Part shown: piece by piece, positions 1,736 to 11,762 of the stretch
Layout: every line of letters begins with the position of its first letter
Position numbering within the stretch: the first letter of the stretch is position 1
Assembly (NCBI GenBank): GCA_015066975.1
Contig: SVNI01000014.1
Span: forward strand, 1-32,237
Reading direction: 5' to 3'
Length of the DNA: 32,237 nt
Source: Ruminococcus sp.
GTDB lineage: Bacteria; Bacillota; Clostridia; Oscillospirales; Ruminococcaceae
The notes under the pieces: model-generated
What the model saw: only the letters and a program-made list of their open reading frames with translations
Database searches by the model: none
Told to the model about the DNA's origin: nothing
Translations under genes and position numbers: made by a program

Positions 1736-2982
1736 GATACTGCTTCGGTTTCTGCCGGAGCAGTATTTTTGTGAAGAAGCTCGGAAATCTGTTCTTTTTC
1801 GGCATTGACCAGCGCGGAAACCTGCTGTTCCGGCTCGAAAATAGAAGTATAGCTGTAAAGGGCGATGCCGGAGATGTTGTCCAGTTCGGAAACGAATTCG
1901 ACTTCTCTGGAGATAACAGTGCTGTCAGTCAGAAATTCCGATTGTCCTGAACCAGCCCACTGGTCAGAATAGCCGATTTTATAAGCACCCAAGCCGATAA
2001 CCAGCTTCGGAACAGTGACGGTTTCTGCCCATAGCTGAATGGTTTCCGCAAAAGGACAGGTATCGTTCCGGAAGCCGTAGTAAATCTGCGGAATGATGAT
2101 ATCACAATAGCCGGGTTCTGATGACCAGAGTCTGACATCAGCATAAAGCTGATTGTAATTGATGTCAAAATTGCCCTGCGGACTGATGCTGAACGGGATT
2201 TCCGGATTGTTTTCTTTTACAGTCTGATATAATAATTTTATCAGTTCGTTGCAGTTGTTTCTGCGCCATTCAGCCAAATCGGGAGCAGAGCTTTCTGAAA
2301 AGGCTTGTCTGTCGAATTCCGGATCTGGAGTCGGATAGAAGTAATCATCAATATGAATACCGTCAATATCATAATTCTGCATGATTTCGGTGATGCCGTC
2401 CGCGATAAGCTGACGTACTTCCGGATAGGCAGGATTCAGATAATATCTGCCGTCATAATTGACAAGATATGAGCCGTTTTTTGTGTCATACCACTGCCGG
2501 AGAAGATATTTTTCATCCAGAGAAGCCATTTTTTGAACACTCTGTGCTCGCATGGGGTTAATCCATGCATGGATGGACAAACCGAGCTGATGGCCTTCTT
2601 CGAGCATGATTTTCAGAGGGTCATAATCACCGGTCAGATAACTTCCAGACGGAAAAAGTTCAGATGGATAATAGGCATCACAATAGGCTCTGACATGAAC
2701 AAAGACAGTATTCAGGCCTAAATCCGTACAGTTCTGGAATGCGTTGTGAACGTTTTCACGGAACTGGGTTTCAGATTTGTTTTCCATCCAGTTTTCATAA
2801 ATCATGACGGGAATCCAGACAGCGCGGATTTCGGTATCTTCTGGGAGATTCTGCACAACATCTTCCAGATGCAGATGCGCTAATTCCTGAAGATAATAAT
2901 CTTCAGTCTGTTCTGTCGGCTGACTGCATCCGCAAAAGATGAATAAAATAAATACTGCTGATAATAAAATTTTAAAATACAT
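1732..2982 (-). CDS. Lipoprotein of glycosyl hydrolase-like family 10 (GHL10, PF02638-type)
   Basis: Predicted membrane-anchored extracellular protein of 416 residues. The N-terminus is a hydrophobic signal ending in IFCGCSQ, a lipobox-like site with Cys19 as probable lipidation residue (the -3 position is Phe instead of Leu). The mature part has the GHL10 pattern: IRAVWIPVMIYENW, LGLNTVFVHVRAY, GLSIHAWINPMR, DIDGIHIDDYFYP and FSISPQGN, consistent with a TIM-barrel hydrolase fold. The family is usually linked to cell-wall or glycan work, but the substrate here is not known. It starts ATG at 2982 behind a GGAGG on the minus strand. It converges on nfi with a four-base overlap, and no separate minus-strand terminator was seen. 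Confidence 0.85.
   Translation of the reverse strand: MYFKILLSAVFILFIFCGCSQPTEQTEDYYLQELAHLHLEDVVQNLPEDTEIRAVWIPVMIYENWMENKSETQFRENVHNAFQNCTDLGLNTVFVHVRAYCDAYYPSELFPSGSYLTGDYDPLKIMLEEGHQLGLSIHAWINPMRAQSVQKMASLDEKYLLRQWYDTKNGSYLVNYDGRYYLNPAYPEVRQLIADGITEIMQNYDIDGIHIDDYFYPTPDPEFDRQAFSESSAPDLAEWRRNNCNELIKLLYQTVKENNPEIPFSISPQGNFDINYNQLYADVRLWSSEPGYCDIIIPQIYYGFRNDTCPFAETIQLWAETVTVPKLVIGLGAYKIGYSDQWAGSGQSEFLTDSTVISREVEFVSELDNISGIALYSYTSIFEPEQQVSALVNAEKEQISELLHKNTAPAETEAVS
1737..1770 (+). terminator. Intrinsic terminator for metK-nfi inside the opposing gene
   Basis: A 12-bp stem (1737-1748 pairing with 1755-1766) with a six-base loop is followed by five T residues on the plus strand, starting just after the nfi stop. 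It lies within the last codons of the minus-strand lipoprotein gene, so the same bases are both coding and terminator. Confidence 0.75.
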
Positions 2983-3042
2983 AAAAGCATCCCTCCTGGT
3001 TAAAACTAGTTTATGCAGGGAGAAAATTTCTCATGCAGTGAA

Positions 3043-10171: not shown

Positions 10172-10927
10172 ATGAAATTGCAGGAAATCAGCGCGTTTGC
10201 AGGGTATTCGCTGAAAGGTCAGCGAAAAACAGCCAGGTTTATGGCTTTCAGCTATCTCGCTGTATGGCTGATGATGAAGACAATTCCGGATTTGACAGCA
10301 GGTGCGCTGATATTCCGGGAAGAAATACTTCCGGCGGATATCTTTTTCAGCCGGAATATGTTCTGGATGGCATTTATCATACTTTGGAATATGCTGAATT
10401 TCTGCATTCTGACTCCGATGCTGTGTGCTGTCTGCGGATGGTTTTCAGAGCAATTGGGTTTCGGCCGGAAGAAATGCTTTTTCGGGCGCGGAAAGCTTTA
10501 CTGGAAATCACTGTGGTTTTTTGGAAAAATCGCTGTCATACGGTTTCTGATGCTGTTTCCATTCGTGCTGGCCTGCTGGCTTGCCGAAAAAACTTTTGAA
10601 AAATCTGCTTTCATGGAAGATGCCGGAATCTGGCTGTTTCTAACGACACAATGTATTGTTGTAGCGGCCTGGACGGGGATTTTGTATCTTCGGTTTTGCA
10701 GCAATTTGATGGCTGTGCCGTTTTTGTTTCTAGAAAATTCGGATATTTCCGCTTTGAAAGCTCTGAAGTATTCCGGCCGGATTCTGGAAGGACGTCACAG
10801 GAAGCTGTTTTTGATTCTCTGCACAGGCTTGACTCTGCCGCGGACTGTCACTATGATGACTCTGTATCTGCAAATCAGGATAAGGGAATATTTTCAGGAG
10901 CAGGAAAAATGCTTGACTTTTTCGTAA
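10172..10927 (+). CDS. Integral membrane protein, possibly DUF975-like
   Basis: A 251-residue protein with about five hydrophobic spans (near 21-48, 63-90, 112-138, 153-178 and 211-233). I do not recognise it with certainty. The motif ALKYSGRILEGRHRKLFLI near residues 197-215, a basic stretch just before the last span, resembles the conserved part of DUF975-type clostridial membrane proteins. ATG 10172 follows AAGGGGG. The last 15 bases of the gene contain the -35 element of the promoter for the downstream RNA array, so coding and promoter sequence overlap there. Confidence 0.7.
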   Translation: MKLQEISAFAGYSLKGQRKTARFMAFSYLAVWLMMKTIPDLTAGALIFREEILPADIFFSRNMFWMAFIILWNMLNFCILTPMLCAVCGWFSEQLGFGRKKCFFGRGKLYWKSLWFFGKIAVIRFLMLFPFVLACWLAEKTFEKSAFMEDAGIWLFLTTQCIVVAAWTGILYLRFCSNLMAVPFLFLENSDISALKALKYSGRILEGRHRKLFLILCTGLTLPRTVTMMTLYLQIRIREYFQEQEKCLTFS

Positions 10928-10941
10928 ATTTATGTTATAAT
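10913..10941 (+). promoter_or_regulatory. Consensus promoter of the tRNA-like RNA array
   Basis: TTGACT at 10913-10918, a 17-base spacer and a perfect TATAAT at 10936-10941. A start about seven bases downstream would fall near 10948, right at the first base of the outer helix of unit 1 (10951). The -35 lies inside the upstream coding sequence. Confidence 0.8.
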
Positions 10942-10950
10942 CAGAAAAAA

Positions 10951-11081
10951 TCCGCCTGATGCAGAGCATTCAGATACTTCGACTTCTAATCGGCGTGTCA
11001 CCGGTTCGACTCCGGTCTGTGCTTGCACAGTAGCTCAGTGGGTAGAGCAGCATAATTCTGGTGCTGATATTCTCAGGCGGA
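10951..11081 (+). ncRNA. Unit 1: permuted tRNA-Arg(UCU)-like element
   Basis: Outer helix 10951-10959 with 11073-11081 (9 bp); second helix 10965-10974 with 11057-11065 (one bulge). In tRNA numbering, the anticodon-like loop CTTCTAA is at 10983-10989 with UCU at 10985-10987. The variable loop is 10995-10999. The T-arm is ACCGG-TTCGACT-CCGGT (11000-11016). The acceptor 3' strand (11017-11023) is followed at once by the acceptor 5' strand (11024-11030, 6 bp plus a T-T mismatch). TA is at 8-9, and the D-arm is GCTC-AGTGGGTA-GAGC (11033-11048). T-loop and D-loop bases needed for the tRNA elbow (GG, TTC) are intact. No CCA is encoded. Confidence 0.75.
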
Positions 11082-11084
11082 ATG

Positions 11085-11183
11085 TATCTGATGCAGTGTA
11101 TCGGTTACTTCGTGGGCGCATATGAGTAATGTTTACAGGGTTCGACTCCCTGCGCCTTGTTCCGGTGCGAGGATTCTCAGATA
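11085..11183 (+). ncRNA. Unit 2: reduced unit with a T-arm only
   Basis: Outer helix 11085-11091 with 11177-11183 (7 bp). Second helix 11097-11104 with 11162-11169 (8 bp including G-U pairs). TACTTC is at 11106-11111. The T-arm CAGGG-TTCGACT-CCCTG (11136-11152) has the same loop as unit 1. GGCG at 11115-11118 can pair with CGCC at 11153-11156, stacking on the T-arm like an acceptor. Acceptor hairpin and D-arm are missing; only nine bases separate the T-arm from the second helix. Confidence 0.65.
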
Positions 11184-11198
11184 ATAATCATGTCAGAA

Positions 11199-11338
11199 TC
11201 TGCCTGATGCAGGGTAGCAGTTACTTCATATAGTCCACGGCGGAGGTTATCGGTTTCAGTCCGGTCTGCTTTAAAAGCAGTAGTTCAATCCAGAACGCCG
11301 CCATTTGAAACATACTGCTGCTGATATTCTCAGGCAGA
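11199..11338 (+). ncRNA. Unit 3: permuted tRNA-Gly-like element with full acceptor stem
   Basis: Outer helix 11199-11207 with 11330-11338 (9 bp); second helix 11213-11221 with 11314-11322 (9 bp with wobbles). In tRNA numbering, positions 39-43 are GGCGG (11239-11243) and the variable loop is 11244-11248. The T-arm is ATCGG-TTTCAGT-CCGGT (11249-11265). The acceptor 3' strand CTGCTTT (11266-11272), a single A (11273) and the acceptor 5' strand AAAGCAG (11274-11280) give a perfect 7-bp stem. TA is at 8-9, and the D-arm is GTTC-AATCCA-GAAC (11283-11296). Positions 27-31 CCGCC (11298-11302) pair with 39-43. The D-arm resembles that of tRNA-Gly. T-loop and D-loop have lost elbow bases. Confidence 0.7.
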
Positions 11339-11405
11339 AAATTAAAAAATTTAATTTTGTTTACAGAAAATTAAGAAAATATTTTCATAAAATTCAGAAT
11401 AACAC

Positions 11406-11434
11406 TTGACATTTTCCGGATTTTATGCTAAAAT
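11406..11434 (+). promoter_or_regulatory. Main promoter of the S10-spc-alpha operon
   Basis: TTGACA at 11406-11411 is perfect, the spacer is 17 bases, and TAAAAT at 11429-11434 carries a TGC extension. The combination predicts very strong transcription, fitting a ribosomal-protein operon. The transcript would start near 11441 and have a leader of about 320 bases. Confidence 0.85.
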
Positions 11435-11440
11435 ATATAA

Positions 11441-11762
11441 AGTCCAAGAAAATTGGATAACTAATATGCGCAGAAGCGGAAGGTTGCTGACGGTTTGTCA
11501 GGGAATTTCCGTGGAGTATGTCCGGTCATCAGAACCGGTCGGCAAGAAATGATGACACAGTATGTGCTACAGGAAGATAGTATTTCCTTTGTGAAATATT
11601 CTCCCTTTAGGTGTGACTGTGTGCCCGTTTGCCGGAATCTGCCAAAGATTGCCGGTTTTTGTATTGCTTAACCCACGATACACACGGAAACGGGAAAAAG
11701 CATCATCTCTGAAAACTGCGCCCCCAATTTTGATTTTTTTAAATTAAGGAGGCGAATTTGAA
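11441..11762 (+). promoter_or_regulatory. Structured leader of the S10 operon, probable regulatory element
   Basis: The untranslated region before rpsJ holds nested helices. CGGAA (11477-11481) pairs with TTCCG (11507-11511), enclosing CTGAC/GTCAG (11487-11491 with 11497-11501). CCGGT/ACCGG is at 11522-11526 and 11534-11538, in competition with GTCATCA/TGATGAC (11525-11531, 11550-11556). An 8-bp hairpin lies at 11579-11600, followed by a terminator-like hairpin. CGGCAA at 11540-11545 can pair with TTGCCG in either arm of that terminator, so a switch is possible. Known r-protein operons are often controlled by their own products through such leaders; which protein would bind here is not shown. 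Confidence 0.6.
11632..11660 (+). terminator. Attenuator in the rpsJ leader
   Basis: CCGGAATC (11632-11639) pairs with GATT and CCGG (11647-11655, one bulged G) and is followed by TTTTT at 11656-11660, about 100 bases before rpsJ. Because it lies between promoter and first gene, it would act as a conditional terminator. Confidence 0.55.

What the first reader, a model, noticed from the sequence alone, without database searches (positions are those of the whole stretch)
10945..11345. Three tandem inside-out tRNA-like RNA units between a membrane-protein gene and the S10 operon
Seen directly: three units, each closed by its own helix, with canonical tRNA T-arms in all three and D-arms in two, but in the order T-arm, acceptor, D-arm. 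The acceptor strands are joined almost directly, and the chain ends emerge on the anticodon side. Circularly permuted tRNA genes are established for some algae and archaea, but I know of no described bacterial family with this scaffold or in tandem array. Inference: either a source of permuted tRNAs, or a non-aminoacylated tRNA mimic that binds a tRNA-handling factor (RNase P, EF-Tu, a modification enzyme, a synthetase or the ribosome).
Basis: partly seen in the sequence, partly recalled or inferred. Interest (0 to 1): 0.92.

Follow-up and report, generated by a model that had tools for sequence, protein, structure and literature searches.

The report
Tandem bacterial Y RNAs mimicking tRNA
The three "inside-out tRNAs" are a tandem set of bacterial Y RNAs, a known kind of small RNA that binds the ring-shaped protein Ro60 and carries a circularly permuted tRNA look-alike, but here they lie away from the Ro60 gene and some relatives also copy a specific tRNA's anticodon hairpin, which may be new.

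Summary
Unit 1 matches Rfam YrlA (bacterial Y RNA) at E=2e-8, below Rfam's cut-off; YrlA is already known as a circularly permuted tRNA mimic (PDB 6CU1). All three units share a Ro-type lower-stem module (TGATGCAG...TACTTC / ATTCTCA). Covariation supports the terminal stem, Ro stem, T-stem and acceptor stem (15 of 28 pairs with two-sided changes, 0/500 shuffles). The genome encodes a Ro60 homologue (predicted fold: the 13 best PDB hits are all Ro60/TROVE proteins), with further Y RNAs directly behind it. In 38 same-genus genomes, Y RNA hits occur in all 10 with Ro60 and in 1 of 28 without (Fisher 2e-8); that one is an incomplete assembly. Ruminococcus-like relatives carry arrays of 3-4 units, usually before the S10 operon, with the same promoter; large phages with their own Ro60 carry longer ones. 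Units 1 and 3 are T-arm/acceptor/D-arm permuted; unit 2 is a non-permuted minihelix. New here: unit 1 and relatives also carry an anticodon-stem-loop mimic (10 of 73 units, 0.4 expected), whose loops mostly equal real tRNA loops. Best label: a divergent YrlA-like variant of a known kind.

The parts
10913..10941 (+). sigma-70 promoter TTGACT-17-TATAAT; conserved in front of the array in all 7 array-bearing genomes
10951..11081 (+). Y RNA unit 1 (YrlA-like, permuted tRNA domain plus anticodon-like hairpin)
   Evidence: Rfam YrlA 43.6 bits, E=2e-8; covariation
10957..10980 (+). unit 1, 5' side of the Ro-type lower-stem module TGATGCAG...TACTTC (3' side TGCTGATATTC 11062-11072)
10979..10993 (+). 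unit 1 anticodon-stem-loop mimic UCGA-CU[UCU]AA-UCGG, loop 10983-10989
11000..11016 (+). unit 1 T-arm ACCGG-TTCGACT-CCGGT
11017..11030 (+). unit 1 acceptor-like stem closed by a short loop (CTGTG/CACAG)
11033..11048 (+). unit 1 D-arm GCTC-AGTGGGTA-GAGC
11085..11183 (+). Y RNA unit 2: Ro-type module plus non-permuted minihelix (GGCG ... T-arm ... CGCC), no D-arm
   Evidence: custom model 40.2 bits
11136..11152 (+). unit 2 T-arm CAGGG-TTCGACT-CCCTG
11199..11338 (+). Y RNA unit 3: Ro-type module plus permuted tRNA domain
11249..11265 (+). unit 3 T-arm ATCGG-TTTCAGT-CCGGT
11266..11280 (+). unit 3 acceptor-like stem CTGCTT/AAGCAG
11283..11296 (+). unit 3 D-arm-like hairpin GTTC/GAAC
11406..11434 (+). 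separate promoter of the S10 operon (not part of the array; shows the array is not needed as its leader)
11463..11545 (+). S10-Clostridia ribosomal protein leader RF03136 (neighbour, not part)

Best explanation
The locus is a tandem array of three Ro60-associated bacterial Y RNAs of a divergent YrlA-like type. SHOWN by computation: each unit has a terminal stem and a conserved internal-loop module that it shares with the Y RNAs directly downstream of the genome's Ro60 gene; units 1 and 3 carry a permuted tRNA-like head (T-arm, closed acceptor stem, D-arm), unit 2 a T-arm minihelix; occurrence across the genus follows Ro60. INFERRED: one transcript from the promoter at 10913-10941 is processed into separate Y RNAs; the lower stem binds the outer rim of the Ro60 ring; the tRNA-like head tethers or gates a partner that recognises tRNA, such as PNPase (as in the RYPER complex) or tRNA-modifying enzymes, for structured-RNA turnover or tRNA surveillance. 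Several heads of different design in one array would let one Ro60 be equipped with several adaptors. The anticodon hairpin in unit 1 would add specificity for a partner that reads the anticodon loop.
For: YrlA match E=2e-8, with the Rfam consensus lining up T-arm, acceptor and D-arm in this order. Ro60 homologue in the same genome: TROVE above cut-off, sequence match to solved TROVE proteins E=1e-8, intact DxSGS motif, model pLDDT 82 whose 13 best PDB hits are all Ro60/TROVE proteins including D. radiodurans Rsr. More Y RNAs with the same module directly behind Ro60 in this genome and next to every Ro60 found in 11 named relatives. Y RNA hits in 10 of 10 Ro60-bearing genomes of the genus and 1 of 28 others. 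Covariation in all four helices, 0/500 shuffles. PNPase present in the own genome. Large phage contigs with Y RNA arrays and Ro60.
Against: The Rfam score is below the gathering cut-off (43.6 against 69). The array is on a different contig from Ro60, unlike the operon arrangement described for Salmonella. For unit 1 the minimum-energy fold (-49.8) re-pairs the Ro stem and D-arm and beats the Y-type fold (-39.1 kcal/mol). No transcript, binding or processing data. G211 has the array but no Ro60 was found (77% complete; a full PNPase and RtcB are also missing there). The partner of the tRNA-like head is unknown in any of these bacteria.
Confidence: 0.88

Rival explanations
1. Permuted tRNA genes: the units are precursors that are cut and circularised or religated into working tRNAs, as in some algae and archaea.
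For: Unit 1 and phage relatives have a complete set of tRNA arms including an anticodon arm with a real tRNA loop; RtcB ligase is in the genome.
Against: No CCA or free acceptor end: acceptor strands are joined by a few bases; the ends form a conserved Ro60-type stem; many units lack D-arm or anticodon arm; occurrence follows Ro60; ARAGORN finds no tRNA here.
Confidence: 0.03
2. A cis-regulatory leader of the S10 operon that senses tRNA or translation state.
For: Same position before the S10 leader in 5 of 7 genomes.
Against: The S10 operon has its own promoter (11406) and its own known leader (11463-11545); in G211 and G198 the array lies before another gene; other relatives have an array next to Ro60.
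Confidence: 0.04
3. A tRNA mimic array that acts without Ro60, for example as a sponge for tRNA-modifying enzymes or nucleases.
For: The tRNA-like head of unit 1 resembles tRNA more closely than the Rfam YrlA consensus in having an anticodon-like hairpin.
Against: Invariant Ro-type module in all units and strict co-occurrence with Ro60.
Confidence: 0.05

Closest known systems
YrlA bacterial Y RNAs (Rfam RF02553; Salmonella YrlA, PDB 6CU1)
   Same: Lower stem for Rsr/Ro60, circularly permuted tRNA-like head with T-arm, closed acceptor stem and D-arm.
   Different: Below Rfam cut-off; array of three units unlinked to Ro60; one unit is a minihelix without D-arm; unit 1 carries an additional anticodon-like hairpin absent from the Rfam consensus.
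Deinococcus Rsr / Y RNA / PNPase (RYPER)
   Same: Ro60 homologue plus Y RNA; PNPase present in the genome.
   Different: Tethering to PNPase untested here; several Y RNAs of different head design.
rsr-yrlBA-rtcBA RNA repair operon (Salmonella)
   Same: Tandem Y RNAs with Ro60; RtcB in the genome (PMC7790460).
   Different: In the own genome the array (C7), Ro60 (C4) and RtcB (C176) are on three different contigs.
Phage Ro60 and Y RNAs
   Same: Large phage contigs with tandem Y RNAs and TROVE protein; TROVE proteins are reported in jumbo phages (PMC7824862) and Y RNAs proposed in a Listeria phage (PMC12282133).
   Different: Longer arrays (up to seven units in L250) and dedicated anticodon-hairpin units.

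Membership tests
YrlA (Rfam RF02553) | Score at or above the curated gathering threshold (69 bits) | tested here: not met
   43.6 bits, E=2e-8 for unit 1; units 2 and 3 not reported. Hence filed as YrlA-like, not as an Rfam YrlA member.
YrlA (Rfam RF02553) | Permuted tRNA-like head: T-arm, closed acceptor stem, D-arm | tested here: met
   Units 1 and 3; T-stem and acceptor stem covary. Unit 2 does not have it.
YrlA (Rfam RF02553) | Substrate of TruB and DusA (modified T- and D-loop) | not testable with these tools
   reported for YrlA in PMC8394870; needs RNA modification mapping
Bacterial Y RNA (Ro60-associated) | Terminal and lower stem with conserved internal loop | tested here: met
   Invariant module in all units, stems covary; same module next to Ro60 genes
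Bacterial Y RNA (Ro60-associated) | Genome encodes a Ro60/Rsr protein | tested here: met
Bacterial Y RNA (Ro60-associated) | Gene near the Ro60 gene (usual, not required by function) | tested here: not met
   Array on contig C7, Ro60 on C4; but three further Y RNAs lie directly behind Ro60, and in L104 a tandem array lies just upstream of Ro60
Bacterial Y RNA (Ro60-associated) | Physical binding to Ro60 | not testable with these tools
   needs pull-down
Circularly permuted tRNA gene | Acceptor ends that mature to a free 3' end | tested here: not met
   acceptor strands joined by a short closed loop, no CCA

The most novel reading that the evidence does not exclude
In Ruminococcus-like gut bacteria and in large phages, Ro60 Y RNAs carry a faithful copy of the anticodon stem-loop of particular tRNAs (Asn, Lys, Arg, Ile, Asp, Ser, Met types), alone or within a complete permuted tRNA. 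They would act as interchangeable baits that direct Ro60, or a partner, to enzymes that read the anticodon loop: for example as decoys for anticodon nucleases, or as targets of the t6A pathway, since most loops have U36-A37-A38.
Probability: 0.35. Interest if true: 0.85.

Novelty: new variant of a known kind. Interest (0 to 1): 0.6.

Why it matters
It corrects a 'new scaffold' claim to a known one, and extends that known one: a divergent YrlA-like branch that Rfam's cut-off misses, arrayed and uncoupled from Ro60, and in part with an anticodon-loop copy whose sequence names the tRNA imitated. What bacterial Y RNA heads bind outside Deinococcus is, as far as I know, an open question; a head that imitates a named tRNA's anticodon loop makes the partner searchable.

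Tried and rejected
Plain Rfam YrlA search over the family: most hits were adjacent ordinary tRNA genes, so it cannot be used without the Ro module. G103 (L004) looked like a YrlA array next to RtcB, but no Ro60 was found in that genome and its stems use a different motif (ACAGCAA), so it was not used as support. L008 was also put aside. The first Ro60 model (8 close sequences) was poor and was replaced. Key Y RNA papers (PMC4201824, PMC6281776, PMC6047535, PMC10870794) are not held, so prior description of anticodon-like Y RNA heads could not be excluded. Phage loci L251 and L358 show anticodon-like hairpins but no model hit and were left out.

Full report
WHAT IS THERE. Between a 251-aa membrane-protein gene and the S10 operon lie three tandem RNA units at 10951-11081, 11085-11183 and 11199-11338. 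Each is closed by its own helix. The motif TGATGCAGnnn(1-6)CnGnTACTTC occurs exactly once per unit and nowhere else in the window, none expected by shuffling. A strong promoter (TTGACT-17-TATAAT, 10913-10941) stands just before unit 1, none before units 2 and 3, and no terminator was found on this strand between units. The S10 operon has its own promoter and its own known leader.

IDENTITY. Rfam YrlA (bacterial Y RNA) matches unit 1 with 43.6 bits, E=2e-8, below its gathering score of 69. In that alignment T-arm, acceptor and D-arm fall on the same elements in the same permuted order. YrlA is described as a tRNA mimic bound by Rsr, the bacterial Ro60 (PMC8394870), and PDB 6CU1 is described as a circular permutation of tRNA (PMC11472068). 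The scaffold is therefore not new.

COMPARATIVE EVIDENCE. In 38 genomes of the genus, DNA search found arrays in seven, with 3-4 full units each, plus a further variant unit in G198. All seven have the same promoter in front. Five lie before the S10 operon, two before another gene. Sixteen D-arm-bearing units align with 28 base pairs, 15 of which show changes on both sides; no shuffle of 500 reaches that, and sliding the partner destroys it. The D-arm was not part of that consensus structure. A model built from them finds hits in 11 of 38 genomes: all 10 that have Ro60 and one without, G211 (Fisher 2.3e-8). G211 is 77% complete and also lacks a full PNPase and RtcB, so its missing Ro60 is probably an assembly gap. 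The model was built from array units, so their own scores are circular, but the hits next to Ro60 genes are independent.

RO60. The own genome has one TROVE protein on another contig (C4), 546 aa, just above Pfam's cut-off. It matches solved TROVE proteins at 1e-8 and has the DxSGS motif. A model from 17 aligned relatives has pLDDT 82; its 13 best PDB matches are all Ro60/TROVE proteins: Thermus phage Ro60, Xenopus and human Ro60, D. radiodurans Rsr. Directly behind this gene lie three more Y RNAs with the same module but other heads. All 11 named relatives, mostly rumen Ruminococcus-like MAGs, also have model hits close to Ro60; in L104 four tandem units lie just upstream of Ro60.

UNIT DESIGN. 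Units 1 and 3 have T-arm, closed acceptor stem and D-arm in permuted order. Unit 2 has an acceptor-like strand before the T-arm and its partner after it: a minihelix, not permuted. By energy alone unit 2 is not significant (z=-0.95; units 1 and 3 have -3.2 and -4.0). For unit 1 the minimum-energy fold keeps the terminal stem, T-arm and acceptor but re-pairs other parts; the Y-type fold is 10.7 kcal/mol less stable in isolation. The Ro60-bound form rests on covariation, not on energy.

ANTICODON-LIKE HAIRPIN. Unit 1 has UCGA-CUUCUAA-UCGG, then a short stretch, then the T-arm. In the six other type-1 units the flanks stay and the three 'anticodon' bases vary (UCU, CCU, GUC, GUU; G201 has an 8-base loop). 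Phage units L234, L244 and L271 have a 5-bp stem, the loop CUGUUAA of tRNA-Asn, a 5-base variable loop, T-arm, acceptor and D-arm: a complete permuted tRNA. The pair closing the loop is A-U in five rows, C-G in two and G-C in one (the outermost pair is unpaired in the host rows). L104, L105 and phages L115, L157, L182, L322 have a stand-alone hairpin of this kind. Test: among 73 non-redundant units defined only by the Ro module, 10 have a stem of at least 5 bp with a 7-base loop of tRNA type (Y32 U33, R37), against 0.41 (sd 0.63) in dinucleotide shuffles, 0 of 500 reaching it. Two of those ten (L002, L056) have loops unlike tRNA. Of 21 loops from confirmed Y RNA loci, 17 equal the loop of a real tRNA with that anticodon found in the same set of contigs, including CUGUCAC for Asp; two have no reference and two differ. 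Of 26 distinct hairpins with at least 5 bp, 16 have U36, against 102 of 342 background loops. Caveat: phage examples were partly collected with patterns requiring CU...AA, so only stem and positions 34-36 are independent there; counts include relatives.

PHAGES. Four of the phage contigs with model-confirmed arrays (L115, L182, L164, L157) also carry a TROVE protein, and Y RNA hits lie next to it. L250 and L254 have seven units in tandem.

MECHANISM. Most likely: a precursor transcript processed into three Y RNAs that bind Ro60 by the lower stem and offer different heads to partners that recognise tRNA. PNPase (RYPER) is the precedent for tethering (PMC8394870, PMC4726728), and PNPase is present here. 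Hughes et al. suggest YrlA may act as a competitive inhibitor of an anticodon nuclease (PMC7790460); anticodon-bearing heads would fit that idea, but it is inference.

VERDICT. Known kind, new variant: divergent YrlA-like Y RNAs in tandem, uncoupled from Ro60, some with anticodon-loop mimicry also found in phages. Prior description of the last point could not be checked because the core Y RNA papers are not held.

Noticed in passing
L250:4954-5827 (170-kb phage contig; same array in L254): Seven tandem Y RNA units in a phage contig, including an anticodon-hairpin unit and two permuted-tRNA units.
   Followed up: partly
L182:5626-6308: A phage contig with Y RNA array, Ro60 and many tRNAs also carries a ROOL RNA (281.9 bits).
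   Followed up: no
L004 (G103), reverse strand, downstream of RtcB ORF 1954-3042: Series of hairpin units with a different motif (ACAGCAA) directly after RtcB, one of them with a permuted tRNA-like head; no TROVE protein found in that genome.
   Followed up: partly
L048, L049 (G199, G202): A second, more Rsr-like Ro60 type (26-27% identity to the window genome's Ro60) in two genomes of the same genus, in one with Y RNA hits upstream of it.
   Followed up: partly
window:6615-8525: Secreted transglutaminase-like protein with Thr/Pro-rich repeats and a type I dockerin, typical of cellulosome-type ruminococci.
   Followed up: no
window:11463-11545: S10-Clostridia ribosomal protein leader (RF03136, 44.5 bits).
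   Followed up: yes
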